Shown one piece after another: positions 1,420 through 38,000 of a stretch of 45,204 nt of DNA (its first letter is position 1; each line of letters starts with the position of its first letter). The stretch lies in contig DASTWL010000065.1 of the NCBI GenBank assembly GCA_035765895.1, forward strand, positions 1 to 45,204, given 5' to 3'. The translations under genes and the position numbers were made by a program. Source of the DNA: Verrucomicrobiia bacterium (GTDB lineage Bacteria > Verrucomicrobiota > Verrucomicrobiia > Limisphaerales > DSYF01). Under the pieces are notes generated by a model. That model saw only the letters and a list, made by a program, of their open reading frames with translations, did no database searches and had not been told where the DNA came from.

Positions 1420-4071
1420 TCACGGCTTCACGCCACGCAGCGTCACTGTAGCCGGCTTGAGCCCCGCTGATTCCGCAATCAACGTGATCTTGCCGGGCTG
1501 GCCAGCCTTGGCGCGCACGATGACGAGCGCGAGCCCGTTGAAAGCCTTGCGCTGCGGTGCCTGGAAGGATTCAAAGCTCGTCGCGTCGCCGTTGTCGGTG
1601 GCGACAATCTCACCCGGTCCCTCGACGCGGAAATGGATTTCATTGTTCGCGCGCGGCACCATGAGTCCGGCCTTGTCGGCCACCTTCACCGTGACGAACG
1701 ACAAATCCCGGCCGTCCGCCGTCAGCTTCGCGCGGTCGGGCGACAGGAGGAGCTTCGTCGCCGGCCCGGTTGTTTTCATCACGTCGGTCGCCCACTTTTT
1801 GCCGTTCTTGTAGGCGACAACCTTGAGTTCGCCGGGTTGATAGACGACGTCGTCCCACCGCAGGCGGTATTCGAGCGGCCCCTTCTTTTTCCGGCCGAGC
1901 GATTTGCCGTTGAGGAACAGCTCCGCCTCGTCGCCGCTGGTGTAAACGTGGACGGGCGTCACCTGCCCCACGCGTTCGGGCCAGTTCCAATGCGGCAGAA
2001 TGTGCGCCATCGGGAAGTCCGGCCGCCAGTGCGCCTGATACAGGTAATAGCGATCCTTGGGGAAGCCCGCGAGATCGACGATGCCGAAATAGCTGCTGCG
2101 CGACGGCGTGCGAATCCGGCCCAGCTCCTGCAGTTCTTTTTCGGCGCGCGCCTTGTCGGCGGGATTCGAGTAGTTGTTCAGGTTGCTCAGGTCCGCGTTG
2201 TAGGGCGTGGGCTCCCCGAGATAATCGAACCCGGTCCAGACGAACTCACCCGCCACGAACGCATTCTTATCCTGCCCGCGAAACTCCGTGTCCGGCGGCA
2301 TCGCCCAGGGCGGGGCATACAAGTCGTAGGAGCTGACTTGAAAATCCGCCAGGCCCTTGGACTTGTCGTTGCTGACGGGGAAAAAATATTCGCCGCGCGA
2401 GCTGACGCACGACGAGGTTTCGCTGGCAAACAGCGGAATGCCCGGATTCGCCGCGCGGAATTTTGCGTATTCGCCGGGTTTGTAGTTGTAGCCGAACACG
2501 TCCACAATCTTTTGAAAGCCGTTGTAACCGGCCTCGGTGTGGTTGCAACCCGCCGTCACGGGCCGCGTGGTGTCCTCGCTGTGGACGATTTCCGCCAGGT
2601 CGCGGGCCACGTTGAAATGGCCGGGGTTCGCCTGCTCGGGAATCTCGTTGCCGATGCTCCACAAAATCACGCACGGATGGTTGCGGTCGCGCCGGAGCCA
2701 GGCCCGCACGTCGGCTTCGTGCCAGTCGTTGTAGAGCAGGTTGTAGTCGTTGCGCTTCTTCCGCATCTGCCACGCATCGAAGGCCTCGTCCATGACGACG
2801 AAGCCCATGCGATCGCAGAGGTCCAGCAGCTCGGGCGCCGGCGGATTGTGGCTGGTGCGAATGGCGTTGCAGCCCATCGCCCGCAAAATCTCCAACTGCC
2901 GTTGCAACGCGCGGGTGTTGATGGCGGCGCCGAGCGCCCCCAGATCGTGGTGGTCGCAAACGCCGTTGAGGCGCAGCCGCTCGCCGTTGAGCAGAAACCC
3001 GTTGTCGGTCGTGAATTGAATCGTGCGAATGCCAAAGGGCGTTTCCACCTGGTCAACGACCTGGCCGCCCTGTTTGACCGTCGTCACGGCGACGTAGCGG
3101 TTCGGCTGGGCCACGCTCCACAGCCTGGGCTTGGGAATCACCATGGTTTCCTCCGCCAGCGAAGCTTCGCCCGGTGCGATTTTCAATCCGCCCATAAGCA
3201 TCGTGGCCACGGCCTTGCCCGTGCGTTTGCCATCGGCGTTCAACGGGTAAAGCGCTGTTTCGACGTCAGCGTCCACGTCCTTGGCGAGGTTGTTCTGCAC
3301 GTCGACCTTTACCAGCACACTGGCCGAGGCGGCGTTGACCTGCGGCGTGGTCACAAACACGCCCCAATGCCCCACATGCAGGGGCGCCGTCTTGACGAGC
3401 CAGACATTGCGATAGAGGCCGGCGCCAGGATACCAGCGGGAGGATTCCGGCGGCGTGTCGAGCCGGATGGCGATGACGTTCTCCGCGCCCGCCTTCACGA
3501 ACGGCGTCAAATCCACCTGCCACGACGCATAACCGTAAGGCCAGCCGCCCACGAACTGGCCGTTCAACCACACGCTCGCGTAAGACATCGCGCCGTCCAC
3601 ATCGAGGTAGATTTGCTTGCCCGCGTCGGCGGCGGGCAGCGTAAAGTGCTTGCGATACCAGACCGGCCCCCACCACTTCAGCTTGCCGGTTTCACCCGGG
3701 TATTCCTGCTGGAACGGGCCTTCAATCGCCCAGTCGTGCGGCAACGTCACGGCGCGCCAGTTGGCGTCCGCAAAGTCCGGCTGCGTGTAGGCCACGTCGG
3801 CACCGACATTGCCCTCGGGACGGGTCGCGCGCTGGGCTTCATCCGCCTTGAACGGCGCCGCCGTCGGCAGCAGCCACGGCTTGAGCGTGGCGTAGCTCAG
3901 TTGGTTGGTCACGCCCGCCGGATCGTCCTTGGTGAACCGCCAGCCGTCGTCGAAGGAAAGGCGTTCCCGCCCGGCCCAGGCCGTGCACAACCCGGCCATC
4001 ACACAGGCGAGACTTGGGAAGACAACCAAACGGACGAAAAGCGGGCGAAGGGGATTTGTTGGGCGTCGCAT
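1420..4071 (-). CDS. Glycoside hydrolase family 2 beta-galactosidase-like, secreted
   Basis: An 883-residue protein. ATG at 4071 was chosen over a start 63 bp upstream because it places a signal peptide (about residues 12-34, ending 'CTAWA') at the N-terminus. GH2 domains follow in order: sugar-binding ('LPHDWAIEGP'), immunoglobulin-like sandwich ('GAGLYRNVWL'), TIM barrel ('NAIRTSHNPP'), and C-terminal beta domains including a DUF4982-like 'AELFLNGKSLG' segment. The acid/base is Glu476 in 'WSIGNEIPE' and the likely nucleophile is Glu551 in 'FASETSS', both present, so the enzyme should be active. It lies 81 bp downstream of the six-hairpin glycosidase gene and 99 bp upstream of another GH2 gene on the same strand. 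Context suggests galactan or arabinogalactan side-chain trimming during pectin use. Exact specificity is not readable from sequence. Confidence 0.93.
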   Translation of the reverse strand: MRRPTNPLRPLFVRLVVFPSLACVMAGLCTAWAGRERLSFDDGWRFTKDDPAGVTNQLSYATLKPWLLPTAAPFKADEAQRATRPEGNVGADVAYTQPDFADANWRAVTLPHDWAIEGPFQQEYPGETGKLKWWGPVWYRKHFTLPAADAGKQIYLDVDGAMSYASVWLNGQFVGGWPYGYASWQVDLTPFVKAGAENVIAIRLDTPPESSRWYPGAGLYRNVWLVKTAPLHVGHWGVFVTTPQVNAASASVLVKVDVQNNLAKDVDADVETALYPLNADGKRTGKAVATMLMGGLKIAPGEASLAEETMVIPKPRLWSVAQPNRYVAVTTVKQGGQVVDQVETPFGIRTIQFTTDNGFLLNGERLRLNGVCDHHDLGALGAAINTRALQRQLEILRAMGCNAIRTSHNPPAPELLDLCDRMGFVVMDEAFDAWQMRKKRNDYNLLYNDWHEADVRAWLRRDRNHPCVILWSIGNEIPEQANPGHFNVARDLAEIVHSEDTTRPVTAGCNHTEAGYNGFQKIVDVFGYNYKPGEYAKFRAANPGIPLFASETSSCVSSRGEYFFPVSNDKSKGLADFQVSSYDLYAPPWAMPPDTEFRGQDKNAFVAGEFVWTGFDYLGEPTPYNADLSNLNNYSNPADKARAEKELQELGRIRTPSRSSYFGIVDLAGFPKDRYYLYQAHWRPDFPMAHILPHWNWPERVGQVTPVHVYTSGDEAELFLNGKSLGRKKKGPLEYRLRWDDVVYQPGELKVVAYKNGKKWATDVMKTTGPATKLLLSPDRAKLTADGRDLSFVTVKVADKAGLMVPRANNEIHFRVEGPGEIVATDNGDATSFESFQAPQRKAFNGLALVIVRAKAGQPGKITLIAESAGLKPATVTLRGVKP

Positions 4072-4152
4072 AGTTCGGCCTTTGATGCAGGAATATCGCG
4101 CCGAATTCAATGTCCAAGTGTGCTGGACGCGCATGTTCGGTTGGGATGTAGT

Positions 4153-6339
4153 TCAAGGCGCCCGCCGCAAGCCTTCGGCGCGCACCACCCACTGGCCATT
4201 GTCAGGAAAGCCCGGTGCGTTTCGTTGCGGCGCACCGTCCCAACCGGCGGCCATCATGGCGGTGGCGTAAAGCAGGCCACCATTGCCGGGCAGATACAGC
4301 GGCAGATTGGGACGCTGATAATTATGGCCGTTGGCCAGGAAATGGTTTTTTGGCGTGTCGAGAAACAACGCATCCAAGGCCCGCTCGGGTTCACCGACGC
4401 GCGCGGCGGTCATGGCCAGCACCGGATAATCCCAGCCCCACGTGCTGGGCCAGTCCCACGTCTGCCAAACGCGGTCGAGCGTCGCCCGCATCGTGGCCGG
4501 CTGGATCAAATCCGTCGGTGGCAGCACCCCGAGTGCGCATAACATGGACGGATGATCGTGCGTCACCGTGTAAGGCGGCGTTTCAATCGCCGCGTAAACG
4601 CCGTCGCGAATTGTAGGTTGCGCCAGGTGCGCCGCCACATCGTCCCATTTGACCTGCGGCGGCAGCCCCAGTTCCCGCCGCCACGCCCGCGCCACGTTCA
4701 GGGCCCACTGCCAGTAGGCGAGTTCGTAGGTGGGATTGAAAATCTTCGCCCGGTCCTTCCCGTAACTTTCCTGGGCCGGAATCACCGGCGGCCCGAGCAC
4801 GTAACGATTCCCTGCCCGGTCCCAGACCGCGTAATCCGCCATGAAATCAGCGGTTTCAAACACGAGGTCGCGATACTTTTCCAGCGTCCGGCGGCCCGGA
4901 TGCGCGCGTCGCAACAGTTCGGCGTAGAAGATGGGATGCGGCTGTTCCCAGATGAGAAACGCCGCGATGCTGCTGGGCGACTGGTCGCCGGCCGGATCAG
5001 TCATCTTCGGCCAGCGCGCGCCGACGTAGCCCTGCGAATGGGCCAGTTCGCGCGCGGCCGGGAGAATCTTCTGATACCACGGCAGGCTGCGTTCGAGCAG
5101 GGCCTCGCGTCCCCACAACGCAAAATGCGCGGCGTGCCACCAGTGCATTTCGAGATGCGGTTTGCCGAACCAACTGTTCTCCACCAACCCCGTTTCCTGC
5201 GGCGGCATCGAACCGGCGCAGTTGATGGCCGTGAGGTATTGCGACAGCACAATGCGCCGTTCCAGTTCAAACCAGCGCGCGTCCTTGCTGCCCGACAGGT
5301 CGATGGCGCCGCCGTCCTTCCAAAACTGCACCCAATGTTTTGCCGCCGCCCGTTTGACCGCGGCGAAATCCGGCAGCCCGCCAATCTTCGGCTGCGGCGA
5401 AAACGCGGCCACGAATTCCAGCGCCGTCACTCCGCCCCTGCCGGTCGCGGCTTCCGCTGAGGCGGCCAGGATGAACTCGTGCGAGCCGGCGGTTTCCAGA
5501 GTCGCGCCCCGGCTGAACGCCAGCGCGACCGAATACGTCGTCGCGTCCAACTGCCGGGCAAAATCCACGCGCCGGCCATGACGCGTCAGGCGCGTTTCAT
5601 GCCGCTCCGGATGATTCCAATCGTCCGCATTCAACCAGTCGCCCGCCGCGTAGGGAAAGGCGAGACGCACGCGGAGTTGCGGCGTGGCCAGCAACGGCGA
5701 CTCGATGCGGACGGCCATCAAGTCGCGCTCCGGATGGCAGACAGTCAGCACGCGCACCGGCTGGCCGTCCAACGTGAAGCGGCTTTCCAGCAAGCCGGAC
5801 CACAAATCCAGCGTCTGCACCGGGGCGGCCAGGTTCGTGATGGCCACGGGCGAACCATCCGCATGCTGCAACCGCAGACCGATGCGCGCCAGATCCAGCC
5901 GGTGCGGGTTGGCCCGCAACCACTGGCTCGCCGCGTGCGCGCGCGAGGATTTCCCGGGATCACTTTCGCCGTCCACCGCGCCGTCGGCATACGGCACCGG
6001 CCGGCCGTGGGTGTCGTAATTCACCAGCACATCCTTCAGCGTAAAGTTTTCCGGGTTCGGAAAACTATGCCAGCCCCACTGCGACATCGTGGCCAGGCGC
6101 ATGCCTTGTGCATGGAACTCCGGGAACGTTTGCAGGCCCGTGATGTCCGCCGTGAAGGCAAACTCGCCGTTGCCGACCGACAACGGCGTGAGCGGATCGG
6201 CGCGGGTCAGGACGATGTTGTGCCGCGTAACCAGCGCGTGCCGGTCGATGGGTTCAGCGGAGGCATTGCGGGCCGCGGCCCCGGTGTTGAGGGCGGCCAG
6301 GAGAAGAACGAAGGCACGCGTTGCACGAAACGGAAACAT
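4153..6339 (-). CDS. Secreted six-hairpin (alpha/alpha)6-type glycosidase, family unassigned
   Basis: A 728-residue protein with an N-terminal signal peptide (FVLLLAALNTGAAA). Its architecture is that of GH65/GH95-like enzymes: an N-terminal beta-rich region, then an (alpha/alpha)6 domain with 'GLVENSWFGKPHLEMHWWHA' near the middle and 'WPSTWGWDYP' late. Candidate general acids are the Glu residues in the 'KPHLEMHWWH' stretch. I do not recognise a specific CAZy family, so the substrate is unknown; context suggests pectin side chains. Start choice is uncertain. GTG at 6399 has a better upstream purine run (GAGGG, about 7 bp away), whereas ATG at 6339 gives a compact signal peptide and was used here. 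The downstream GH2 gene follows after 81 bp and is probably cotranscribed. Confidence 0.8.
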   Translation of the reverse strand: MFPFRATRAFVLLLAALNTGAAARNASAEPIDRHALVTRHNIVLTRADPLTPLSVGNGEFAFTADITGLQTFPEFHAQGMRLATMSQWGWHSFPNPENFTLKDVLVNYDTHGRPVPYADGAVDGESDPGKSSRAHAASQWLRANPHRLDLARIGLRLQHADGSPVAITNLAAPVQTLDLWSGLLESRFTLDGQPVRVLTVCHPERDLMAVRIESPLLATPQLRVRLAFPYAAGDWLNADDWNHPERHETRLTRHGRRVDFARQLDATTYSVALAFSRGATLETAGSHEFILAASAEAATGRGGVTALEFVAAFSPQPKIGGLPDFAAVKRAAAKHWVQFWKDGGAIDLSGSKDARWFELERRIVLSQYLTAINCAGSMPPQETGLVENSWFGKPHLEMHWWHAAHFALWGREALLERSLPWYQKILPAARELAHSQGYVGARWPKMTDPAGDQSPSSIAAFLIWEQPHPIFYAELLRRAHPGRRTLEKYRDLVFETADFMADYAVWDRAGNRYVLGPPVIPAQESYGKDRAKIFNPTYELAYWQWALNVARAWRRELGLPPQVKWDDVAAHLAQPTIRDGVYAAIETPPYTVTHDHPSMLCALGVLPPTDLIQPATMRATLDRVWQTWDWPSTWGWDYPVLAMTAARVGEPERALDALFLDTPKNHFLANGHNYQRPNLPLYLPGNGGLLYATAMMAAGWDGAPQRNAPGFPDNGQWVVRAEGLRRAP

Positions 6340-6518
6340 GCCGTCATGAGGCCGGGTGAGGCCTACTTGAAGTTTGCCGCGCATGGTTTTCAGACGCACT
6401 TAAATCCCTCGTGTTCAATTCACGTGAGACATTTTCAACAGCCTGCCTAGCAGCTCTGGCGGGAGTCTGGGCGAAGGAGCGGCCAGCGCGAGAAGGGGCG
6501 AGGGCAGGAAAATCTCAG

Positions 6519-7027: not shown

Positions 7028-7279
7028 TTATGAAACTAGCCCATTAAGAATTGCTATTGGATACCACTCACCCTGGCGATAAGACGTCTGGCCGTTCACC
7101 GCCACTGAATTGGTCACCAGCGCCATCCCCATTACATCCACGACCCCGGCCACGGTCCGATTGGTGTATTGATTGAGCAGGGTCACGGTGTAGTTATTCG
7201 TTTGCAGATTCTGACCGTTCTGGTCGCCACCCGCCCGAGTCTGCTGCCGGTTCCCGAGGTCGTCAAAAGCATATTCAAT
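7028..7279 (-). pseudogene. RHS/YD-repeat protein remnant
   Basis: An open frame of 83 codons ending in TAA at 7028 has no start of its own. It reads 'IEYAFDDLGNRQQTRAGG', then 'LLNQYTNRTV', then 'VNGQTSYRQGE', a pattern typical of the body of RHS-repeat proteins in Verrucomicrobia. Full RHS proteins are over a thousand residues, so this is an internal scrap. After 'YRQGE' the sequence abruptly becomes AT-rich ('WYPIAILNGLVS' then stop), marking a recombination joint. Its 5' end abuts and overlaps the stop codon of the PL4 gene in another frame. The downstream lipoprotein shares the AT-rich composition. Confidence 0.72.
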
Positions 7280-10200
7280 ACGGCGCGCGCAGCCGGAAGA
7301 ACAGGCTGCCGTGGGCGGGGTCGAATGGCAACGTGAACCGGTTCGTTTGCGTGGAGTCGGAGAGGATGAACCAGTTCGTGCCCAAGCCGGCGCCGGGCGC
7401 GTTGGTCTGCGCCTGCAAGACCCAGCCGGTATGGTCCGACGGCCAGAGCAACTGCAACTGACCGGCGTTCGCCGTCACGCCCAGTTGCGGCGGACTCGCG
7501 GACACCGGGCGGGCGGCGACGGGCGCGGAATCAGCGCTTTCGCCCGCTACGTTGAGCGCCGACACCGTGAAGTAATACAGCGTGCCGTTGGTCAGCGGCG
7601 CGCTGACCACGCTGGTTCCGGCCACGTTCGTCAGCGTGGTGTAAGGACCGGCCGGCGCCGGGGCGCGTTTCACGTGGTAACTGGCCGCGTTGGGGGCGGT
7701 GGTCCATTGCAGCTCCACCTGTGCATCGCCAGCGAGCGCCATCAGATTCGCAGGCGCGGCGGGCGGAACAGTCAGCTGGGAAATTTCCGCCGCACTCAAC
7801 GCGCGGTTGTAAATGCGCAACTCATCCACCGCGCCGGCCATGCCGGGATCGCTCCACTGCGACCGGCCCAGGTAGTTCGACACGGTGTTGCCCAAGGTGG
7901 AAGGCCGCAGCGTCATCGCGCTGTTCGTTCCCACCGGCGCGCCGTCCACATAAAGGATGCCGACCGGGCCCGTAAGCGTCACCGCCACGTGATGCCAGAC
8001 GCCGGTCGTCAGCACCGTCGGGCAGTTGATCTGTTCCTCGCTCCCGTTCGAGCGCCGCGTGATTGCATAGCGGACGGTGTTGCCGCCGTAGCTCGCCGGG
8101 GTCAGGAACATGTAGGTGCCCGTGCCCGAACCGAAATCGAAGACGCGCGACCACGGGACCAGCGTGTCCAGCTTGACCCACGCGGCGATGGTGAAGTCGT
8201 TCAGGTTGCTGACCACGCCCGTCGGCAGGCGCACGAAGCCATTCGCGGTGCCGTCGAGATGAACGGCGTTGCCCGACTTTCCGGCCACCCAATTCGCCCC
8301 GGAGCCGAGCGCGGCCGCGTTGGTGCCGGCATCATCCGCAGCCGTCGAGCCGTCGGTCTCATCGAACGTCCAGTGCGCGTAGAGGTCGAACGGGTGCGTG
8401 GTCACGACGGATGAATTGCCGCTTTCGCCCGCGACGTTGACCGCCGACACGACGTAGTAATACGGCACGCCGTTCGTGACGGTGGCATCGGTGTAAACGG
8501 GCGCCGGCACGCCGCTGGCAATCGTGATAAACGGTCCGCCGGCGGCACCGGAGCGTTTGACGTTGTAACTGGCCGCGGCGGGCGAACCGCTCCACGTCAG
8601 GACGACGCGCGCGTTGTCCGGCCGGGCTGCCAGTCCAATGGGCGGGGACGGCGCGTTCGCGACCGGACCGTCCAGTTCGAGGCAGTCGTAAGCCCAGCTC
8701 GCGCTCAGCCACGGGCCGAGGTCGCCCGAGCCGCTCACGGGATTGATTTGCAGTGTGTTCTGCCCCACGACGAGCGCGCTGGCCGGAATGTTGAACGTAT
8801 AGAGGTAATTATTCTCCCGATACGTGCCGACGGTGATGCTGCGCGTCTTAGGCTGCGACGGCGCGCCGGAGTAGGACGAGTTCCAACTGTTGACGGTAAT
8901 CTGCGGGCGGCCGCCGTTGTAGGCGCAGGTCGTGCCGAGGCGCAAGGTCAGCGGCGTGATTTGATTCGCGGCCAGGTTGAATTGGATGACGGCGGGTGAG
9001 TTCGTGCCGCGGAATTGCACGCACGGAAACTGGCTGGCGCTGTTGCTCTCGATGACGAAGGGCCACGGCGCCCAGTTGCTCATCCGCACGTCCGACGGAT
9101 GCATGGTCGTGAGCCGGTCGGCGTTCAACAGGCCGGCGGGCGTGCCGTCCCATTCGCCAAGCTTCCAGATGAACGTTGGCGCGGGCGCGGTCGAAACGAG
9201 ATTCAACGTGTTCGTCATCCCCGCGCTCACGCTCACCGGCGCGGTGGCCACGGCGAGTTCCTGTTTGTAAAGCGTCGCCGTATAGGTGCCCGGCAGCATC
9301 AACAGCGAAGTGAAACCGCCGTTTGTCCCGGCCACGGTCCAGTATTGCGCCTGCTCGTTCGCGAAGCCCACGACCGGCTGAAAGCCTGCGGGCACGCCAG
9401 CGACCGTGCCTTTGACGATGCCGCGGCCGGCGGCGGGAACCCATCCGACCAGGTTCAAGCCGCCGGTTTCGATCCAAGAATAATCCAGATTGGTTTCCGG
9501 TAGTCCGCCGCCGGTGAACACCAGCGCATACGGGCCGTTCAGGATGTTGGTGCGAAACGGCTCGGTCTGCCCTTCGCCGTAGTTGATGATGTAGGTGATT
9601 TCCTGGTCGGTGCCGCACTGGTTCAACAGGCTGCGATAGAAGGGCCCGCCGGAATCACCTTCGTGACTGCTCCGGTCCATGAAGACGCCGACGTTGTTGC
9701 CCGTCGCGCCGATGAAGGCCCAGTCCAGCAGGCGCATGTTGGAATAATGCTTCGAGCGCGTGGTGCCGTCGGCCATGCCGAAGATGTCGCCGGATTCGAT
9801 GGCGCCGGTGTTGTTGCGGATGTCCGACGGCGGCGGACCGTTGGGCAGCAGGCTGGACGGGATGCGGACGATGAACCGGCACAATGCCTGCGCCTCCGGC
9901 TCCTGCGTGAAATGCGTGGCCATGTAGATGACCGGATCGCCGTTCCGCGCCAGGTAGTAATGGGTCAACACGCCCTGCCCGCTGGCGGGGTCGCCGCTCA
10001 CGACGGTGATTTTGAGGTGGTTCGTGCCGTAAACCGTGGCGCTGACGGTCACGAGGTTGGTGTAGTTGTAAATCCAGTCGAAGCCGGAGTTGATCTGCGA
10101 GCCGCGCGACTGGTCCTGATACTCGACGCCGTTGTAAACCAGGCTCATCAGGTCGCCGGCCGACTGCGTGCTCGAACCATTGTCCGTGCGGCGGACCTTG

Positions 10201-10370
10201 AAGACCAAACCGGCGCCGGTATCCACCTGGTAATAATCAGCCGCCGTGGTCAGCCCAAACGCGGCTCTCACCTCCCCCGAAATCAAAAGACCGGCGGCCA
10301 GCGCGAGGACAAACAAAGCCAGCCGGCATCGCCGGATGCTTTCCTGCGCGGTTCGCCACCGTGAACTCAT
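7275..10370 (-). CDS. Rhamnogalacturonan lyase (PL4-type) with fn3 and LamG modules
   Basis: A 1031-residue secreted protein. ATG at 10370 was chosen because it gives a signal peptide ending 'SGEVRAA'; a GTG 15 bp upstream is possible. The N-terminal part resembles PL4 rhamnogalacturonan endolyase: 'DTGAGLVFKVRRTDNG', 'SKHYSNMR' with Lys207, and 'EGDSGGPFYRSL'. A PL4-type fn3-like linker ('GIVKGTVAGVP') and carbohydrate-binding jelly-roll ('WKLGEWDGTPAGL', later 'WAYDCLELDGP') follow. Two fibronectin type III repeats ('SYNVKRSGA' and 'SYHVKRAPA') flank a LamG/concanavalin-like domain ('HWTFDETDGS' to 'DELRIYNRALS'). PL4 enzymes cleave the rhamnose-galacturonate backbone of rhamnogalacturonan I by beta-elimination. 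At the position expected for the catalytic His of the fungal enzyme this protein appears to carry Glu266. It follows the GH28 gene by 27 bp and is likely cotranscribed. Confidence 0.88.
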   Translation of the reverse strand: MSSRWRTAQESIRRCRLALFVLALAAGLLISGEVRAAFGLTTAADYYQVDTGAGLVFKVRRTDNGSSTQSAGDLMSLVYNGVEYQDQSRGSQINSGFDWIYNYTNLVTVSATVYGTNHLKITVVSGDPASGQGVLTHYYLARNGDPVIYMATHFTQEPEAQALCRFIVRIPSSLLPNGPPPSDIRNNTGAIESGDIFGMADGTTRSKHYSNMRLLDWAFIGATGNNVGVFMDRSSHEGDSGGPFYRSLLNQCGTDQEITYIINYGEGQTEPFRTNILNGPYALVFTGGGLPETNLDYSWIETGGLNLVGWVPAAGRGIVKGTVAGVPAGFQPVVGFANEQAQYWTVAGTNGGFTSLLMLPGTYTATLYKQELAVATAPVSVSAGMTNTLNLVSTAPAPTFIWKLGEWDGTPAGLLNADRLTTMHPSDVRMSNWAPWPFVIESNSASQFPCVQFRGTNSPAVIQFNLAANQITPLTLRLGTTCAYNGGRPQITVNSWNSSYSGAPSQPKTRSITVGTYRENNYLYTFNIPASALVVGQNTLQINPVSGSGDLGPWLSASWAYDCLELDGPVANAPSPPIGLAARPDNARVVLTWSGSPAAASYNVKRSGAAGGPFITIASGVPAPVYTDATVTNGVPYYYVVSAVNVAGESGNSSVVTTHPFDLYAHWTFDETDGSTAADDAGTNAAALGSGANWVAGKSGNAVHLDGTANGFVRLPTGVVSNLNDFTIAAWVKLDTLVPWSRVFDFGSGTGTYMFLTPASYGGNTVRYAITRRSNGSEEQINCPTVLTTGVWHHVAVTLTGPVGILYVDGAPVGTNSAMTLRPSTLGNTVSNYLGRSQWSDPGMAGAVDELRIYNRALSAAEISQLTVPPAAPANLMALAGDAQVELQWTTAPNAASYHVKRAPAPAGPYTTLTNVAGTSVVSAPLTNGTLYYFTVSALNVAGESADSAPVAARPVSASPPQLGVTANAGQLQLLWPSDHTGWVLQAQTNAPGAGLGTNWFILSDSTQTNRFTLPFDPAHGSLFFRLRAPY

Positions 10371-10397
10371 GAAAGCCAATGACACGACGAATGAAGG

Positions 10398-11777
10398 TTA
10401 GTTCACGCCGCGGGCGCTTTGCCGGGGCGATGGGTTGCTCGGGCCGGCGGCGGTGCGCACGGCGGTGTCCTCGGGCGCGCTCACCACTTCGCCATTCACC
10501 CGCACGTTGACGAACTTCAGCCCTGTCGCGTGTTCCACGGTGAAGCCGCTGGCCGCGTCGATGCTCACGTTCTCCAGCGTCACGTTGCGGAGCGGGCTTT
10601 CGGGAAGGCCCACCAGCCGGCCGGCAGACTGGCAGTGCGTCGCCCTGAGGTTGCGCACGGTGATGTCGCGAAACACCGGCGTGCCGATCTCCGGCGGCAC
10701 GGGCGTGCGAAATGCCTCGGGCAGCCACGTCTTGGCCAGCGCGTTCATGTTGAAGTTGAACACGGACGCAATCCCGTCCGCCTCGATGTTCTCGTAAACG
10801 ATGTCCTCCACCACGCCTCCGCGGTCCATCTTCGTCTTGAACCGCACGACTTCCTGACAGCCGTCTTCGGCCCGGCAATCCGACACGCGCACGTGGCGAA
10901 TCCCGCCCGACGTCTCGCTGCCAATGACGACCAGCCCGGCGGCGTGGCCCACGCGGCAGTTTTGCACCACCACGTTCTCGGTGGGCCGGTTCACCCGCAA
11001 CCCGTCGGCGTCACGGCCGGCCTTCAAACAAATCGCATCGTCGTCGCAGACAATGTCGCAGTTCGTGATGACCACGTTGCAGGTGGAATCGATGTCAATG
11101 CCGTCCGAACTGGCCGCCTTCACGCCGTCGTGGTGGGCCCGCACCTTGAGGCCATCCACCAACACGCCGTCGCAATAGGTCAGTTGCAGGTGCCAGAAGG
11201 CGGAATCCTTCATCAACACGTCGCGCACGGTGACGTTTCGCGAGCGGATGATGTGCACGAGCCGCGGCCGGCCAACCTTGAAATGCGGGTCGAGGCCGTC
11301 CGGTTCGGCGCGGCGCACGCCCCAGTATTCCTGCCACCAGCGCAGACCCGAGCCGTCGATGGTGCCCGGGCCGGACAACACCAGATTGGTGACCGAATCC
11401 GCGTTGATGAGCGCCGCGGGCCATTTCATTTCCAGCCCGGCAATGCGCGTGTTGATCCACGGATAATCGTTCGTATTTTCGGAACCCTTCAGCACGGCGT
11501 CCTGTTCCACACACAGGTTCACGCCCGGCTTCAAGAAAATCGAGCCGGTGACAAACGTTCCCTTGGGCACCACCAAGGTGGCCCCACCCGCCGCGGCGCA
11601 ACGGTCAATGGCCCGTTGAATCGCGGCCGTGTTGAGCGTCCGGCCGTCGCCGACGGCGCCAAATTCGGTGATGCTGCGCCGCGCGGGCGCAGCCGGTGTG
11701 GCTCGGGTGCAGCCAGCCAGCAGTCCGCCGAGCACCAGCCCGGCCAACAATCCCTTCACGCTCACTCTGCCAATCAT
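10398..11777 (-). CDS. GH28 polygalacturonase-family lipoprotein
   Basis: A 459-residue protein starting at ATG 11777, with lipobox 'LLAGC' (Cys23), so probably anchored in a membrane. The pectate-lyase_3-type N-terminus 'ITEFGAVGDGRTLNTAAIQ' is followed by a right-handed beta-helix. GH28 active-site signatures are present: 'SSDGIDID', the Asp cluster 'CDDDAICLKAG' (Asp245-247), 'GHAAGLVVIGSE', and 'RFKTK' in place of the usual RIK. GH28 enzymes hydrolyse alpha-1,4-galacturonan or rhamnogalacturonan; the 'GSE' form is common in bacterial exo-acting members. The gene starts 11 bp after the oligogalacturonate lyase gene and precedes the PL4 gene, so it belongs to the pectin operon. Which of the galacturonan activities it has cannot be told from sequence. 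Confidence 0.93.
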   Translation of the reverse strand: MIGRVSVKGLLAGLVLGGLLAGCTRATPAAPARRSITEFGAVGDGRTLNTAAIQRAIDRCAAAGGATLVVPKGTFVTGSIFLKPGVNLCVEQDAVLKGSENTNDYPWINTRIAGLEMKWPAALINADSVTNLVLSGPGTIDGSGLRWWQEYWGVRRAEPDGLDPHFKVGRPRLVHIIRSRNVTVRDVLMKDSAFWHLQLTYCDGVLVDGLKVRAHHDGVKAASSDGIDIDSTCNVVITNCDIVCDDDAICLKAGRDADGLRVNRPTENVVVQNCRVGHAAGLVVIGSETSGGIRHVRVSDCRAEDGCQEVVRFKTKMDRGGVVEDIVYENIEADGIASVFNFNMNALAKTWLPEAFRTPVPPEIGTPVFRDITVRNLRATHCQSAGRLVGLPESPLRNVTLENVSIDAASGFTVEHATGLKFVNVRVNGEVVSAPEDTAVRTAAGPSNPSPRQSARGVN

Positions 11778-11788
11778 TGCTGCCACTT

Positions 11789-13003
11789 TCACTTGCTCCC
11801 GTTGCCTGCGGTTTGGGCCGGCGCCACTTCGACCGCATAGACCTGCGGCGAACCGTCGAAATTCCCGCGGAACACGATCCACTGGCCATCGGGAGTGAAA
11901 TGCACATTCGGCTCCAGTTGGTAATTGTGCCCGGCCATGTTGACGAGGTGCTCGCCGCGCAACGTGCCATCGGCCTGCGGCGTGAACAGCCAGATCCATT
12001 TGCCGTCGGTCGCATGCGCCACGTTGCCGGGACCGCCGCCATCCCCGGCAAACCGGCGTTGGTCGCGGGAGATGTTGTAGTGCACCGACCATTCATCCCG
12101 CGCCAGGGGGTAACGCGTCTCGCGACCGGTGGCGAGATTCACCCCGGCGAGGAAGAACGTCTGGCCGCGCGGCATTTGCAGGTCGAACCACGCCGTCCTG
12201 CCATCCGGGCTCCAGAATTCGTGGCCGGCGATTTCCATTGGCATGGTGCGGGAGTGCATGAGGCGGAGTCCGGAACCATCCGTGCGAATCTGCCAGATGC
12301 GGTCCACCAGATGCCACGGACCTTCATGACAAAACATCAACAAGGTCGGATCGGTGGGCGAAAACTGCACGTGCCCAAGCCAGCCTTCATACCGGTAAAA
12401 TGAATGCGTCCGGCCGGAACTCACATCCACCGTGAACAGTTGCTGGGGACGCTTCGCCGCGAAGATCGTGTTGAACCATTCCGATTTGGGCCGGCCGCGC
12501 GTCTCGATGCGCGGGCCGGACTCCACATAAGTCCCGGCGAGCAGGGTTTCGTCGGCGTTCAACGTCGAGATGTGCCAGCCCGGCGGCAGCGTGGCGACGA
12601 CGCGGGTGGCCTTGGTGTCAATGTCGGTGGCGCAAACCTCCCGACCGCGTTGGTAATACACGCGGCGGCTATGCCGGGCTACCACGCCCTGCCCGGCACC
12701 CGCCTCAGTCAGCGATTCGAGGCGCAGCGTCTCGAGATCCACGCTGTAAAGGCGGTTGCTGGCGCCCGCCTGGGTGTTCTCAAACACCATCTTGTCCCCC
12801 GACGGCGTGAACGCCTCCTGATGAAAGTAGAAACTCTGGCTTTCACCGGGCAGGCGGGAGAGTCGGATGACCCGATGGCCTGTCGCGGGGTCAATCCAGT
12901 CATCGCGCAGTCCGGCGGTTTTGTCCGCTGCACCGGTGCGACAGCCCGTCACCGTGATGAGCGCGCTCAGTCCGGCGGCGCCGAGAACAGCGATCGTTTT
13001 CAC
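11789..13003 (-). CDS. ogl: Oligogalacturonate lyase (PL22)
   Basis: A 404-residue beta-propeller enzyme. GTG at 13003 is preferred over an in-frame GTG at 13024 for two reasons. AAAGG lies about 6 bp upstream, and the start overlaps the TGA stop of the upstream esterase gene as GTGA, so translation is probably coupled. A lipobox 'TVTGC' (Cys21) suggests a lipoprotein, which is unusual because the classical enzyme is cytoplasmic. Family signatures include 'LTEAGAGQGVVA', 'GWLGHVQFSPTDPTLLMFCHEGPW', and the metal-site motif 'QLEPNVHFTPDGQW' with the conserved Gln and His. PL22 enzymes convert unsaturated di- and oligogalacturonides to 5-keto-4-deoxyuronate, feeding the KDG pathway. Its place between the esterase and GH28 genes matches that role. 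Confidence 0.92.
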   Translation of the reverse strand: MKTIAVLGAAGLSALITVTGCRTGAADKTAGLRDDWIDPATGHRVIRLSRLPGESQSFYFHQEAFTPSGDKMVFENTQAGASNRLYSVDLETLRLESLTEAGAGQGVVARHSRRVYYQRGREVCATDIDTKATRVVATLPPGWHISTLNADETLLAGTYVESGPRIETRGRPKSEWFNTIFAAKRPQQLFTVDVSSGRTHSFYRYEGWLGHVQFSPTDPTLLMFCHEGPWHLVDRIWQIRTDGSGLRLMHSRTMPMEIAGHEFWSPDGRTAWFDLQMPRGQTFFLAGVNLATGRETRYPLARDEWSVHYNISRDQRRFAGDGGGPGNVAHATDGKWIWLFTPQADGTLRGEHLVNMAGHNYQLEPNVHFTPDGQWIVFRGNFDGSPQVYAVEVAPAQTAGNGSK

Positions 13004-14487
13004 CAGCCGCCTTTCTTCGCCCACGGATTGTCCGTGCGGAACGACGAGGCCGGCAGTCCGGCGCCATTGGCCAGGTTCGGCTGCGCCAGTTCATGCCATC
13101 CGAACCGCACCGCTTTGGGCGAGGCGACCGCCGGGCTCGACACCACAACGGAATCGCCGTCAATGCGCGCGTTGGCCGGGACAAACCGGCCGTCTGCTCC
13201 CGCGATGGTGAACGAATTCAACGGCTGTCCGTCCCGGGCAACCAGGCCGGCATCGGTCCCGCGAAACCTGACAACGATCCGGTCGGACTGGATCCGCGCG
13301 CCATCAAACAGCGGCCCGGTGCAGACGACGTTTCTTTGCCCATAAGTGCGGTTCAATGCGAGCAGTGCCAGGCGCAGGCCCACGTCCTGTTTGTCCGTGG
13401 GATGAATGTCCTTCAAATTGTTGACGGTGTCGGTGATGACCGCCATGCCGGTGTGCGGCAGTCGGAGGCAATGCGTCTGCGCTTCCCAAATTTCAGGCAA
13501 CTCCTCGGGAGAGACAACGCGCGGCGTGGGGCGGTTGCTGTAATACGAGTAAGGCGCGAGTTGCACGTAGTAGAACGGAAAATCCCCCTGCCTCCAGAGT
13601 TTGCGCCAGCCGCGGATGAGCGCCTCGAACTTGGCTGCGTAGGCGTCGCCGTCATTGACATCCATGCAGTTGGATTCGCCCTGATACCAGAGCACGCCGC
13701 GCAGGGCGAATGGTTTGAGCGGCGCAATCATCCCGTTGTAGAGCACGCCGGGCATCGTGTTGACGAGCTTGTTGGTGCCGGGAGAAAACCCGGCCAGCGA
13801 CGCCACCGCCGCAACGGAGCGGAAACCCTCCGGCGGCGTCCAGGGCTCCACGCGGGTGCCGCCCCAGGCAGATTCAACCAGGCCGATGGGCACTCCGAGT
13901 TCCTGGTGCAGCTTGCGCGCAAAAAAATAGGCCGCCGCCGAAAACTTCAGTGCATCGAGCGAGTTGGAACTGCACACCGTCCAGGTTCCCGCCACATCCG
14001 ACGCGGGCGTCGCCGCCATGACGCGTTGCGCCTTGAAAAGACGGATGTCCGGGTAAGCATCGCCGGTTGCGAGTTCCGCCTCAAAATTTCCCACCGGCTT
14101 CTGACCGCGCTGGAGGCCGATGGGTTTTTCCATGTTGGACTGCCCCGAACAGAGCCAGACTTCGCCGACCAGCAGATTGGTCAGGGTAATGACCGAGCCG
14201 TCGCCCGAGATGGTCATTGTTGCCGGCACATTCGCGGTTGTGAGCCGCCGCAATCGCACCTGCCAGCGGCCGTTGGCATCCGCCGTGGCTCGCCGCGTCT
14301 GGCCGGCAAAGACCACTGTGACCGGCGCCCGCGGCGTGGCCCATCCCCAAATGGGCACCGGCTGGTCGCGTTGCAGGACCATGTTGCTGTTAATTACATG
14401 CGGCAGGGAGAGCGCTGCCCACGCGGAAGCCGCGAGGCCCAGAAAACACAACCACCCCACCGACCGGATCGTAAAACTTCTGCTCAT
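13000..14487 (-). CDS. SASA-family (sialate O-acetylesterase-like) carbohydrate acetylesterase
   Basis: A 495-residue secreted protein with a signal peptide (FLGLAASAWA) when started at ATG 14487. SGNH/SASA motifs are intact: block I 'CSGQSNME' with catalytic Ser117, 'ESAWGGTRVEPW', 'LWYQGESN', and the catalytic-His motif 'DIHPTDKQDVG'. Such enzymes remove O-acetyl groups from sugars. In a pectin operon the natural substrate would be acetylated rhamnogalacturonan or galacturonan rather than sialic acid, which is inference from context. It is the first gene of the minus-strand pectin operon and overlaps the next gene by 4 bp. I could not assign a convincing promoter in the upstream gap. Confidence 0.92.
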   Translation of the reverse strand: MSRSFTIRSVGWLCFLGLAASAWAALSLPHVINSNMVLQRDQPVPIWGWATPRAPVTVVFAGQTRRATADANGRWQVRLRRLTTANVPATMTISGDGSVITLTNLLVGEVWLCSGQSNMEKPIGLQRGQKPVGNFEAELATGDAYPDIRLFKAQRVMAATPASDVAGTWTVCSSNSLDALKFSAAAYFFARKLHQELGVPIGLVESAWGGTRVEPWTPPEGFRSVAAVASLAGFSPGTNKLVNTMPGVLYNGMIAPLKPFALRGVLWYQGESNCMDVNDGDAYAAKFEALIRGWRKLWRQGDFPFYYVQLAPYSYYSNRPTPRVVSPEELPEIWEAQTHCLRLPHTGMAVITDTVNNLKDIHPTDKQDVGLRLALLALNRTYGQRNVVCTGPLFDGARIQSDRIVVRFRGTDAGLVARDGQPLNSFTIAGADGRFVPANARIDGDSVVVSSPAVASPKAVRFGWHELAQPNLANGAGLPASSFRTDNPWAKKGGW

Positions 14488-14816
14488 GCGTTTTGATGAA
14501 CCACACCCGTCGTCCGACAAAATCGCGCTTGGACCAGTGATAAGGCATATCGTGTGCGCGGCTTGGCTCGGCTGTGAAACTAACCGGAAGCGGGGGATTT
14601 CGTAGTCGCCAAAATTGGTGAGTGGGTGGGGTATCCGTTCGAGCCGCCTCACGCCCGCGACCTGGCAGCAAAAAAACGGAGCCGGTTCCATAAGAACCGG
14701 CTCCAGCATTACCCCAACCCCTGGGGCGACGCGGAGTCACCTTTGGACGCCCGCGTCCCGCCCCTGACACTATTCCTTTCGGCGGCCAAAGGGAGTCGCC
14801 AATTCTGGCGACCCGC
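14488..14816. other. Intergenic region with hairpins between two minus-strand genes
   Basis: This 329-bp gap separates the oxidoreductase gene from the acetylesterase gene, both on the minus strand. It holds the strong terminator at 14670-14704 and a weaker 7-bp inverted repeat (GTCGCCA/TGGCGAC, about 14796-14813) directly after the oxidoreductase stop. The part nearest the esterase (14488-14660) must contain the pectin-operon promoter, but no hexamer pair is clear enough to name. No coding sequence is seen. Confidence 0.5.
14670..14704 (-). terminator. Rho-independent terminator
   Basis: A perfect 11-bp inverted repeat (GGAGCCGGTTC / GAACCGGCTCC, 14678-14704) with a 5-nt loop is followed on the minus strand by a G and then six T residues (14671-14676 on the plus strand are A). 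This is a textbook intrinsic terminator for the oxidoreductase gene ending at 14817. It isolates that gene from the pectin operon downstream. Confidence 0.88.
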
Positions 14817-34610: not shown

Positions 34611-35078
34611 ATGCGCCGCCGCTTTCCCTGGGCCGCCGGCCCGCTGCTGCTCGTCCTGCTCGGCGCGGGCTGCCGCACCACGCACTGGCTTCCGCCAGCG
34701 GATTTGGAGGCCCCCGGCTGGACGGTGCAGCCGGGACAGGCCGTCTGGAAACCCAGCCGCTCCCGCCCGGGGCTCGCGGGCGAACTGCTCCTCGCCACCC
34801 GCACGAACGGCGACCTGTTCGTGCAGTTCGACAAGATCCCCTTCCCGCTCGCGACGGCGCAAATCACGGGTGATGAATGGCAGATCCGTTTCGGCACGGG
34901 CAAATACGCGTGGCACGGTCGCGGCGAACCGCCCGCGCGTTTTGTGTGGTTCCAATTGCCGCACGCGTTGGCCGGCGAACCGCTGGCCGCCCATTGGAAA
35001 TTCACGCGTGACGGCAACGCCTGGCGGCTGGAGAACCAGCACACCGGCGAAGCGTTGGAGGGCAGCCTCGCGCCATGA
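34611..35078 (+). CDS. Small lipoprotein of the pigment-like operon (DUF3261-like)
   Basis: A 155-residue protein with lipobox 'LLGAGC' (Cys21). The mature domain contains 'WTVQPGQAVWKPS', 'GELLLATRTNGDLFVQFDKIPFPL' and ends 'NTGEALEGSLAP'-like sequence. It resembles, in size and position, the DUF3261-type lipoprotein found in aryl-polyene gene clusters beside LolA and the MMPL exporter. I infer this from context more than from sequence. It starts 9 bp after the flavoprotein gene and its TGA overlaps the exporter ATG (ATGA at 35075). It is probably an outer-membrane acceptor or assembly factor. Confidence 0.78.
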   Translation: MRRRFPWAAGPLLLVLLGAGCRTTHWLPPADLEAPGWTVQPGQAVWKPSRSRPGLAGELLLATRTNGDLFVQFDKIPFPLATAQITGDEWQIRFGTGKYAWHGRGEPPARFVWFQLPHALAGEPLAAHWKFTRDGNAWRLENQHTGEALEGSLAP

Positions 35079-38000
35079 AAAAAGCGCGCTGGCATTGGGC
35101 GTGGCTATGCTTGCTGCTCCCGGCTCTCGCGGGCTGGCTGCACCTGCGCTTCGACGCCGAAGTTCTGGATCTGCTGCCTGCCCAAATCCCGGCCGTCGAA
35201 GGGCTCAAGCGTTACCAGGAACATTTTGCAAATGCGCAGGACCTGCTCGTCACGCTCACGGCCGCCGATGCCGCCACCGCCGCGCACGATGCCCAGACAT
35301 TGGCCGAAGCACTCGGAGCCCACAGCAATCTCGTCGCGAACGTGACCTGGCAGGCGCCCTGGCTGGAGCATCCGGAGCAGGCGCCGGAGCTGGTGGCGTA
35401 TCTCTGGTTGAACCAGCCGCCGGAGGTGTTTCGTGCGCTGACGAACCGCCTCGCCCCCGCCCACTGGCCCGCCATTCTCGACGCCACGCGCGAGCAACTG
35501 GCCACCACGCTTTCGCCCACGGACATCGCCCAGCTCAGTTACGATCCCTACGGTTTCACCCGGTTGCCGGACAACGTGGCCGGCATGGCGCCGAACTTTG
35601 CGCAAGGGCAGTCGTTGTTCGCCTCACCCGACGGCCAATTCCGGCTGCTGTTCGTCCGGCCGCACGGCGAACTCAAGGGCTACCGTGAATGCACCGCGTG
35701 GTTGAACGACGTTCGCCAGATCACCGACGACGCCCTGTCGCCGGCCGAACGAGCCGGAGTGAAAATCGCCTTCACCGGCCGGCCGGCGTTCGTCGCCGAA
35801 ATTTCGGCCAGCATGCGGCGCGACATGATTTTGTCCTGCGGCGGCACGGCCGTAATCATCGCCATCCTGTTCTGGTTCGCCCACCGGCGGTGGAAACCGA
35901 TGCTCTGGCTGCTGACGCTGCTGGGCATCATCCTCGCGCTCACGCTCGGGCTGGGCGGATTGTTCTTCGGCACCATTCATGTCATCAGCATGGGCTTCGC
36001 GGCAATCCTGCTGGGCCTCGCGGTGGATTATGCCGTGGTGCATTACCAGGAGGCGATCGCCCATCCGGACCTCAGCGTGCCGCAAATCCGCCGGGCCATT
36101 GCGCCAAGCATTTTTTGGGCGGCCATCACGACCATCGCGGCCTTTTTCGTCCTGAATTTCGGCGGTCTGCCCGGGCTGGCGCAGCTCGGCTCCCTCGTCG
36201 GCATCGGCGTGGCACTCTCGGCGGTGGTCATGATTTTCGCGTATCTGCCGCCGCTCTTTCCGGAACGCATGCACGGCGGAACAGCCACCTCGACGGCATC
36301 CGTTGCGGCTTCCGCAACGCCGGCCCGCGCGTTCCTCGTCGAACGCACTGCGGTTTGGATCACGGCGTTGTTGCTGGTGGCGTGCGGACTGATTCTGGTC
36401 ACGGGATTGCCGGCCGTTTCTGGCAGCGCCGACACGCTGCAACCGCGCGACAGCCAGGCTTACGCGGCGCTGAACGAAATGAAGCGCCAGCTCGGCCAGA
36501 CGCAGGACCCGCTCTGGGTCGTGGTCGCCGGACAGACGGAAAGCGACGTGGCCGCGAAGCTCGACCATATCCAGCCGGTGCTGGAAACGGCCGTGTCCAA
36601 TCAGTGGCTAACCAGCTTCACCTTGCCGCAATCGCTGTGGCCGCATCCGGCGAATCAGGCCGCCAACGCCGCCGCGGCCCGTCCGCTCATCGCCCAGCGG
36701 GCGGCGTTGCGCGACGCCCTGCTGGCCGGCGGATTTTCCGGCGACGCCATGGGCCTTGCGGATTCCGTGCTCGACACCTGGCAACGCGCCGCCGCCACCA
36801 ACGTGTTCTGGCCCACCAACGCGCTGTGCACCTGGGTGCTCGACAAACTCGTCGCCCGCAGACCGAACGAACTCCATGCCGTTGGCATTCTGTTTCCCGC
36901 CACCAACGCACCGCCCGACGCCTTCCGCTCCCTCGCAGCCGCTTTGCCCCACGACGGCGTGTGGTTGTCCGGCTGGGAACTGCTGGGCGGCACGGTGCTC
37001 GACGTGGTGAAGGCCAACCTGTGGAAGCTCGTGCTGCCGATGGTGGCGCTTGTGCTGTTGTCACTCTGGCTCGCGTTCCGGCGGCCGGCGGAAATTCTAT
37101 TGAGCCTTGGCTCCCTGCTGTTCAGCGGCGTGCTGCTGCTCTCGGTCATGAAACTCGCGGGCTGGTCGTGGAACGTGCTCAATCTGATGGCGCTGCCGCT
37201 CATTCTCGGCACCGGCGTGGATTACGGCATCTTCATGCAACTCGCGCTGCGCCGGCACGGCGGGGATTTGCGCGTCGCCCGGGCCTCCGTCGGCCGCGCG
37301 CTGCTGCTCTGCGGCGGCACGGCCATCGCCGGCTTCGGCATGCTCGGTCTGTCGAGCAACGCCGGCATGGCCAGCCTCGGCCAGGTCTGTGCCGTGGGCA
37401 TCGCCGGCAACATGCTGCTCGCCGTATTTCTGCTGCCGGTGTGGTGGCGCAAATTCGCCCCGATGAACGTCCCGGCGCAGGCGCTGCCGTCCCGGCCTTC
37501 GACCTTCTATCAAGCCCGGGTGTGGGCGGCGGGCGTCACGCTCTGTCGCTGGCTGCCGCCCCGCCTGACCGAAACCGTCGCCCGCGCGGCGGCGGGAACG
37601 TATTACTGGCTCGCCCCGCACCGTCGCGAAGTCGTGGCCCAAAATCTTCTGCCGCTCGTGAATCACGACGTCACGCAGGCACATCGCCTGGCGCGCCAGT
37701 CGTTCTCGGCGTTTGCGACAAAGCTGGTTGACCTCTGGCGCTACGAGGGCGGCGAGGCCGTGGGACGCCGCTTCGCCACCTGGAGCGGCTGGGAACATTT
37801 TGAAGCCGCCGCCGCGCGCGGTTGCGGCGTGCTGCTGGTGACGCCGCATCTGGGCAACTGGGAACTCGGCGGACCGTTCATGATCGAGCGCGGCCAGAAA
37901 TTGCTGGTGCTGACGCAGGCCGAACCCGACGCCCGGCTGACCCAACTACGCCAGGAATCCCGCGCCCGTTGGGGCATTGAAACCCTCGTCGTCGGTGCCG

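What the first reader, a model, noticed from the sequence alone, without database searches (positions are those of the whole stretch)
9560..9760. PL4 lyase appears to have Glu in place of the catalytic His
Lys207 in 'SKHYSNMR' corresponds to Lys150 of the Aspergillus aculeatus enzyme. The segment 'NYGEGQTE' aligns with the fungal 'NSGHVQTE', so His210 corresponds to Glu266. The spacing is 59 here against 60 there, so the alignment is good. Either Glu acts as the base, another residue substitutes, or the protein has become a binding module.
Basis: partly seen in the sequence, partly recalled or inferred. Interest (0 to 1): 0.52.

Follow-up and report, generated by a model that had tools for sequence, protein, structure and literature searches.

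The report
Pectin lyase clade with swapped catalytic residue
A bacterial enzyme that should cut the pectin polymer rhamnogalacturonan I lacks the histidine its fungal relative needs, and so do dozens of relatives in two bacterial phyla, which suggests that this enzyme family rebuilt its active site once and kept the new version.

Summary
The window protein (7275-10385, minus) is a PL4 rhamnogalacturonan-lyase homologue in which Lys207 aligns with catalytic Lys150 of the Aspergillus enzyme, and Glu266 with His210. A confident AlphaFold model superposes on 1NKG without a register problem (pLDDT 93.5, Z 47, 1.3 A over 501 residues).

It is not a one-off. Among 104 distinct rows, 67 have Lys-His at 150-151; of these 58 have Glu and 9 Gln at 210, and all 67 lack Glu105 and Asp190 and have Tyr at 208. 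Of the other 37 (Lys-Tyr/Phe), 36 have His210, Glu105, Asp190 and Ser208. The 67 form one clade, derived from His ancestors, in Verrucomicrobiota and Proteobacteria.

Gln replaced Glu at least three times, so Glu is probably not the catalytic base. Lys207, Arg165 and other shared pocket residues are invariant and the catalytic domain is the best conserved part, so a dead binding module is unlikely. Best reading: an active lyase with a rewired centre, His208 and/or Tyr264 (both 67 of 67) taking over from His210. No activity or atomic geometry was tested.

The parts
7275..10385 (-). PL4 rhamnogalacturonan-lyase homologue, 1036 aa from a GTG, or 1031 aa from the ATG at 10368-10370; domains RhgB_N, fn3_3, CBM-like, fn3, Laminin_G_3, fn3
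   Evidence: Pfam RhgB_N E 8.5e-68, CBM-like 9e-36, fn3_3 1.8e-17, Laminin_G_3 1.8e-33, fn3 3.9e-08; a further fn3 at residues ~576-660 by match to PDB fn3 chains
9459..10259 (-). catalytic RhgB_N domain
   Evidence: the genome search match G000:C65:9459-10259, 233 bits
9750..9752 (-). Lys207 (212 from the GTG), equivalent to catalytic Lys150 of the fungal enzyme; invariant
   Evidence: K in 104 of 104 rows
9747..9749 (-). His208 (213), clade-specific invariant His next to the catalytic Lys; Tyr or Phe in the His-type
   Evidence: 67 of 67 in the Glu/Gln clade, 0 of 37 elsewhere
9573..9575 (-). Glu266 (271), at the position of catalytic His210
   Evidence: E 58, Q 9 of 67
9579..9581 (-). Tyr264 (269), at the position of Ser208; clade-specific
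   Evidence: 67 of 67 in the clade; Ser in 36 of 37 elsewhere
9588..9596 (-). Thr259-Tyr260-Ile261 replacing Tyr203-Trp204-Tyr205 of the fungal enzyme
   Evidence: Thr 65 of 67 at 203 against Tyr 37 of 37; at 205, Ile 50 and Met 6 of 56 against Tyr 33 of 34 (the 90-row set)
9630..9632 (-). Ser247 (252) replacing Asp190
   Evidence: Ser 63, Cys 4 of 67 against Asp 37 of 37
9882..9884 (-). Leu163 (168) replacing Glu105 of the GELR motif
   Evidence: E105 absent in 67 of 67; the distant PL4-like loci read GE[TS]R or GQSR here. Codon position computed by hand from the ORF coordinates
9876..9878 (-). Arg165 (170), equivalent to Arg107; invariant
   Evidence: 67 of 67 and 37 of 37
9663..9665 (-).
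   Evidence: His 17 of 67
10398..12092 (-). GH28 pectinase-family neighbour (ORF start probably too far upstream, overlaps the next ORF)
   Evidence: Pfam Glyco_hydro_28 E 1.8e-29
11789..13024 (-). PL22-like (oligogalacturonate lyase) neighbour
   Evidence: Pfam Pectate_lyase22 E 1.9e-27
13000..14709 (-). SASA-type acetylesterase neighbour
   Evidence: Pfam SASA E 2e-20
1420..4134 (-). GH2 glycosidase near the cluster
   Evidence: Pfam Glyco_hydro_2_C E 8.4e-31

Best explanation
The protein belongs to a PL4 (RhgB_N-type) subclade that arose once from ordinary Lys/His rhamnogalacturonan lyases and rebuilt the surroundings of the catalytic lysine. Shown: the Lys and the other shared pocket residues (Arg107, Arg111, Asp139, Glu180, Arg217 equivalents) stayed, while Glu105, Asp190, Tyr203, Tyr205, Ser208 and His210 were replaced together on one branch and a His was placed directly after the Lys. 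Inferred: it is still a secreted lyase acting on RG-I or a variant of it by beta-elimination, with Arg165 and Lys207 handling the uronate carboxylate and/or proton abstraction; the job of the lost His210 has moved to His208 and/or Tyr264 (a His/Tyr-like pair), and Glu/Gln266 only positions or hydrogen-bonds and is not the base. The single origin and the residue linkage are near certain; activity is likely; the exact residue that substitutes is a hypothesis.
For: Linkage without exception: all 67 Lys-His rows lack Glu105 and Asp190 and have Tyr208; 36 of the 37 Lys-Tyr/Phe rows have His210, Glu105, Asp190 and Ser208. One clade with SH-aLRT 100 on a tree built without the 19 diagnostic columns; one change on the larger tree. 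Polarity: five distant PL4-like loci keep GGHF or SGHY and GE[TS]R or GQSR, four of them with K-Y found by the motif search; L015, a fragment, shows only the GGP and GGHF parts. Gln at 210 in 9 of 67; three changes forced by starred branches, four on the best tree. His208 and Tyr264 67 of 67 and clade-specific. Mean pairwise identity within the clade: catalytic domain 0.632, fn3_3 0.565, CBM-like 0.571. Model superposes on 1nkg at Z 47.0. Pectin context in the window (GH28, PL22-like, SASA), in Paucibacter L060 (GDSL esterases, pectinesterase) and beside an annotated pectate lyase in Eleftheria L111. His/Tyr is a usual lyase pair, and the title of a reference in the same paper reports a lyase with Lys as both base and acid (PMC9410043, passages read).
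Against: No activity is shown for any clade member in what I could read, and no coordinates were available, so it is not known whether the His208 or Tyr264 side chain points into the cleft; His208 directly follows Lys207 and could face away. Most neighbours tested beside clade members L020, L022, L041 and L058 are not pectin genes. Of 14 clade genomes tested, 4 have neither GH88/GH105 nor PL11. A test for coupling of positions 105 and 210 within the clade gave no support. The single origin means that the linked changes are one evolutionary event, so linkage alone does not prove contact.
Confidence: 0.55

Rival explanations
1. Glu266 itself replaces His210 as general base or acid, and Gln members are inactive or weak side branches.
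For: Glu stands exactly at the His210 position in 58 of 67 members and the model shows no register shift.
Against: Gln arose at least three times and is fixed in all seven distinct rows of the Microbulbifer group, drawn from three genomes; those rows keep Lys, His208 and Tyr264. Genome G488, which holds L009 (the same protein as L026), has a single RhgB_N gene and it is a Gln form.
Confidence: 0.15
2. The clade lost catalysis and works as a carbohydrate-binding or scaffold protein.
For: The residue mutated in the fungal H210A variant is gone, with Tyr203 and Tyr205 also gone.
Against: Lys150, Arg107, Arg111, Asp139, Glu180 and Arg217 equivalents are 67 of 67; the catalytic domain is the most conserved domain in the clade; several genomes, including the window's own, have no His-type RhgB_N copy. 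New invariant residues appeared instead of drift.
Confidence: 0.12
3. The clade is an active lyase whose changes mainly serve a different substrate (for example acetylated or substituted RG-I), a division of labour with the His-type.
For: Both types occur in one genome in at least eight sampled genomes, side by side in Paucibacter (L060), the L058 MAG and G949. Substitutions extend to Trp217, Arg233 and Asn278.
Against: Gives no account of how the missing His210 is made good; it can be true together with the best explanation. No substrate data.
Confidence: 0.18

Closest known systems
Aspergillus aculeatus rhamnogalacturonan lyase (PL4; PDB 1nkg, 2xhn, 3njv, 3njx)
   Same: Same three-domain PL4 module, Z 47.0 over 501 residues at 1.3 A; Lys150, Arg107, Arg111, Glu180, Arg217 shared
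   Different: His210 to Glu, Phe151 to His, Glu105 to Leu with a one-residue insertion, Asp190 to Ser, Tyr203 to Thr, Tyr205 to Ile, Ser208 to Tyr
Bacterial His-type PL4 (Paenibacillus, Massilia, Paucibacter and others), sister to the clade
   Same: 40-58% identical to the window over the PL4 module; six Burkholderiales rows are the sister group
   Different: K-Y, GELR or GEFR, FRD and NSGH motifs in place of K-H, GLxR, YRS and NYG[EQ]
Distant PL4-like proteins found as weak RhgB_N matches (loci L013, L014, L016, L019, L096; probably the Rhamnogal_lyase/RhiE/plant type, a label from recall)
   Same: Comparable K-Y, GExR, GGP and GGH motifs
   Different: Keep His at 210; only remotely similar
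PL26 exo-rhamnogalacturonan lyase (5xqg and related entries)
   Same: Similar fold over part of the model, Z about 15 over 229 residues
   Different: rmsd about 5 A, 8-9% identity; not the same family

Membership tests
PL4, RhgB_N type (defined by sequence and fold) | Match to Pfam RhgB_N above the curated cut-off | tested here: met
   229 bits against a cut-off of 27.2
PL4, RhgB_N type (defined by sequence and fold) | Three-domain module RhgB_N, fn3_3, CBM-like | tested here: met
   All three in order over residues 43-571
PL4, RhgB_N type (defined by sequence and fold) | Fold of the family's solved member | tested here: met
   Z 47.0, rmsd 1.3, 501 aligned residues with 1nkg; model pLDDT 93.5
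Lys150/His210 mechanism of the Aspergillus enzyme | Catalytic lysine (Lys150) | tested here: met
   Lys207; K in 104 of 104 rows
Lys150/His210 mechanism of the Aspergillus enzyme | Catalytic histidine (His210) | tested here: not met
   Glu266; E 58 and Q 9 of 67 in the clade
Lys150/His210 mechanism of the Aspergillus enzyme | Tyr203 and Tyr205 (active-site role recalled, not from a call) | tested here: not met
   Thr259 and Ile261
Rhamnogalacturonan lyase (activity) | Beta-elimination of RG-I | not testable with these tools
   No assay; sequence and context only
Non-catalytic carbohydrate-binding protein | Relaxed conservation of catalytic pocket | tested here: not met
   Catalytic domain identity 0.632 against 0.565 and 0.571 for the ancillary domains

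The most novel reading that the evidence does not exclude
PL4 holds two catalytic centres in one scaffold: an ancestral Lys/His type with supporting Glu105 and Asp190, and a derived type in which proton transfer moved to a His placed directly after the catalytic Lys together with a new Tyr (His/Tyr-like), leaving the old His site as a Glu or Gln structural residue. That would be a traceable migration of a catalytic residue within one lyase family, with living sister enzymes on either side of the switch.
Probability: 0.35. Interest if true: 0.7.

Novelty: new variant of a known kind. Interest (0 to 1): 0.52.

Why it matters
If the clade is active, PL4 offers a natural experiment in moving a catalytic residue: a single switch on the tree, dozens of descendants in two phyla, and genomes that hold both versions side by side for direct comparison. 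It also warns that function calls based on the fungal Lys/His pair would mark a whole bacterial subfamily as dead. It would give pectin-processing work a second, mechanistically distinct RG-I lyase type.

Tried and rejected
Register error: rejected by the superposition and by the shared motif in relatives. Alternative His in SSHEGDSGG: rejected, His in 17 of 67. Coupling of positions 105 and 210 inside the clade looked promising (105 is Gln or His in 6 of 9 Gln rows and 2 of 58 Glu rows) but the independent-pairs test gave no support.

The single-protein scan of genome contigs found nothing; the alignment scan worked but kept only the best 80 of 170 relatives, ranked by likeness to the window, so 67 against 37 is not a census and the unseen 90 are probably mostly His-type. 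The first AlphaFold job with 11 sequences was poor at the active-site loop and was replaced by the 90-sequence job. Atomic distances could not be measured: no tool returned coordinates. NCBIfam gave no PL4 model for the four PL4 proteins tried. Ten paper searches listed no paper that I recognised as describing Glu or Gln at this site; only open-licence papers are held, and I read passages of four papers (PMC8787155, PMC6712302, PMC9410043, PMC10951650), no supplements. The original mechanism paper on the fungal enzyme was not seen; its content is recalled, apart from the PDB titles.

Rows dropped before counting: fragments L012 and L017, a remote ORF in L096, identical or near-identical duplicates, and partial frames of L101, L102, L114, L130 and L133.

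Full report
What was checked. The minus-strand ORF 7275-10385 encodes a 1036-residue protein, with a hydrophobic N-terminal stretch that looks like a signal peptide (by eye), with the PL4 module RhgB_N, fn3_3, CBM-like, followed by fn3, Laminin_G_3 and fn3. The PDB itself marks the two fungal residues: 2xhn is titled 'K150A active site mutant' and 3njx 'mutant H210A'. Codons are 9750-9752 and 9573-9575.

Is the alignment sound? A first AlphaFold model from 11 sequences was weak in the active-site loop. A second from 90 sequences has mean pLDDT 93.5, with every ten-residue block of the catalytic domain at 86 or more. It superposes on 1nkg with Z 47.0, rmsd 1.3, 501 residues, 42% identity and TM-score 0.92. 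No tool returned coordinates, so side-chain geometry is untested.

Who else has it? RhgB_N is rare: 6 of 387 genomes of the phylum matched, 1 of 4 of the family, 3 of 146 of the order, 10 of 150 of the family of G143, 10 of 399 of the family of Paucibacter, 3 of 144 of that of Microbulbifer, 1 of 274 of the class of the Pseudomonas genome, and 1 of 118 around Pectobacterium fontis. Some of these matches are weak and below the family cut-off, and the counts include the centre genome. An alignment scan of the species genomes of genome contigs found 170 relatives, of which the best 80 were fetched; a plasmid search added three distinct proteins.

The clade. In 104 distinct rows, 67 read Lys-His at 150-151. 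Of these 58 have Glu and 9 Gln at 210; all lack Glu105 and Asp190; all have Tyr at 208. Of the other 37, 36 have Tyr or Phe at 151, His210, Glu105, Asp190 and Ser208; one Lachnospiraceae protein (L097) has Ile210 and His208. No mixed case was seen. On a tree of 91 rows built without the 19 diagnostic columns, the Glu/Gln rows are one side of one branch with SH-aLRT 100, next to six Burkholderiales His-type rows. A tree of 105 rows agrees, one change. Both trees were quick searches without bootstrap. Distant PL4-like loci keep GExR (GQSR in L096), K-Y where the motif search found it, and GGH or SGH, so His is ancestral. Members come from Verrucomicrobiota and from Beta- and Gammaproteobacteria, among them Massilia, Duganella, Pelomonas, Pectobacterium fontis, Pseudomonas, Marinobacter, Microbulbifer and Acinetobacter.

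Is Glu the base? Gln occurs in nine distinct rows. Parsimony needs four changes for the Gln label on the best tree and at least three on starred branches: one Verrucomicrobiota protein (L026, the same as L009), a Microbulbifer-family group with seven distinct rows, and one protein of the Paucibacter family (L122). A catalytic carboxylate would not be expected to become an amide three times while Lys207, His208 and Tyr264 stay invariant. This is an argument from conservation, not a measurement.

Is it dead? In the clade the equivalents of Arg107, Arg111, Glu136, Asp139, Lys150, Glu180, Asn207, Arg217 and Tyr224 are 67 of 67. Mean pairwise identity is 0.632 for the catalytic domain, 0.565 for fn3_3 and 0.571 for CBM-like; in the His-type the figures are 0.567, 0.547 and 0.558. 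Loss of function should relax the catalytic domain first; the reverse is seen.

What could stand in? Residues at 97% or more in the clade and under 10% elsewhere are His208, Trp217, Arg233, Thr259, Tyr260, Tyr264 and Asn278 (renumbered; only polar and charged residue types and Trp were listed). Of those that can carry a proton, His208 and Tyr264 are 67 of 67. His as base with Tyr as acid is one of the two usual lyase schemes, and the title of a reference in the same paper reports a family with Lys as both base and acid (PMC9410043, passages read). In PL42 a single His does both jobs, supported by a second His and an Asp (PMC10951650, passages read). The loss of two acids (105, 190) with His210, and the gain of His next to Lys with Glu/Gln at 210, reads as a rewired proton network. 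A coupling test inside the clade between 105 and 210 failed.

Context. In the window the gene lies with GH28, a PL22-like gene, a SASA esterase and GH2. The window's genome has one RhgB_N gene, no PL11 RGI_lyase match and six matches to the GH88/GH105 family; PL9, PL26 and the other PL4 type were not tested. In Paucibacter (L060) the Glu-type and His-type genes are neighbours beside GDSL esterases and a pectinesterase (7 of 13 ORFs of that locus scanned). Neighbours of L020, L022, L041 and L058 that I scanned were mostly not pectin genes (a chosen part of the ORFs of each locus). Of 14 clade genomes, 8 have PL11 and 10 have GH88/GH105; four have neither. At least eight sampled genomes hold both types (EW11, Paucibacter CHU3, the L058 MAG, UBA6018, bin05, the JAIENA MAG, Pseudoduganella rivuli, G949; contigs assigned to one genome by record prefix).

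Verdict. By sequence and fold it is PL4; by residues it fails the Lys150/His210 scheme. Most likely it is an active lyase with a relocated proton-transfer residue. Assay and geometry are the missing pieces.

Noticed in passing
L097:8001-9524: A Lachnospiraceae PL4 of the His-type branch has Ile at 210 and His at 208 (MNHAIGATED), with GCLR for GELR: a second, separate way of losing His210, seen once.
   Followed up: partly
L018:709-2280 and L084:1494-3065: Limisphaerales PL4 proteins carry a seven-residue insertion directly after His210 (SGHHLDLTIAGELEAF) and lose the QTE motif.
   Followed up: no
L060:5363-9614; L058:4156-7746; G949 contig C14 (L114, L124): Glu-type and His-type PL4 genes lie side by side in the same direction, suggesting paired use.
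   Followed up: partly
L036:6021-9593: Microbulbifer rhizosphaerae has two adjacent Gln-type PL4 genes between TonB-receptor plug proteins, and a third Gln-type copy elsewhere (L107).
   Followed up: partly
window 4153-6399 (-): A 748-aa ORF beside the pectin cluster has no Pfam match at 0.01 and no NCBIfam match at 0.001.
   Followed up: no
window 10398-12092 and 11789-13024 (-): The GH28 and PL22-like ORFs overlap by about 300 bases as listed; the GH28 start is probably internal.
   Followed up: no
window 35075-38368 (+): One ORF joins an MMPL-type transporter part to a lipid A acyltransferase domain.
   Followed up: no
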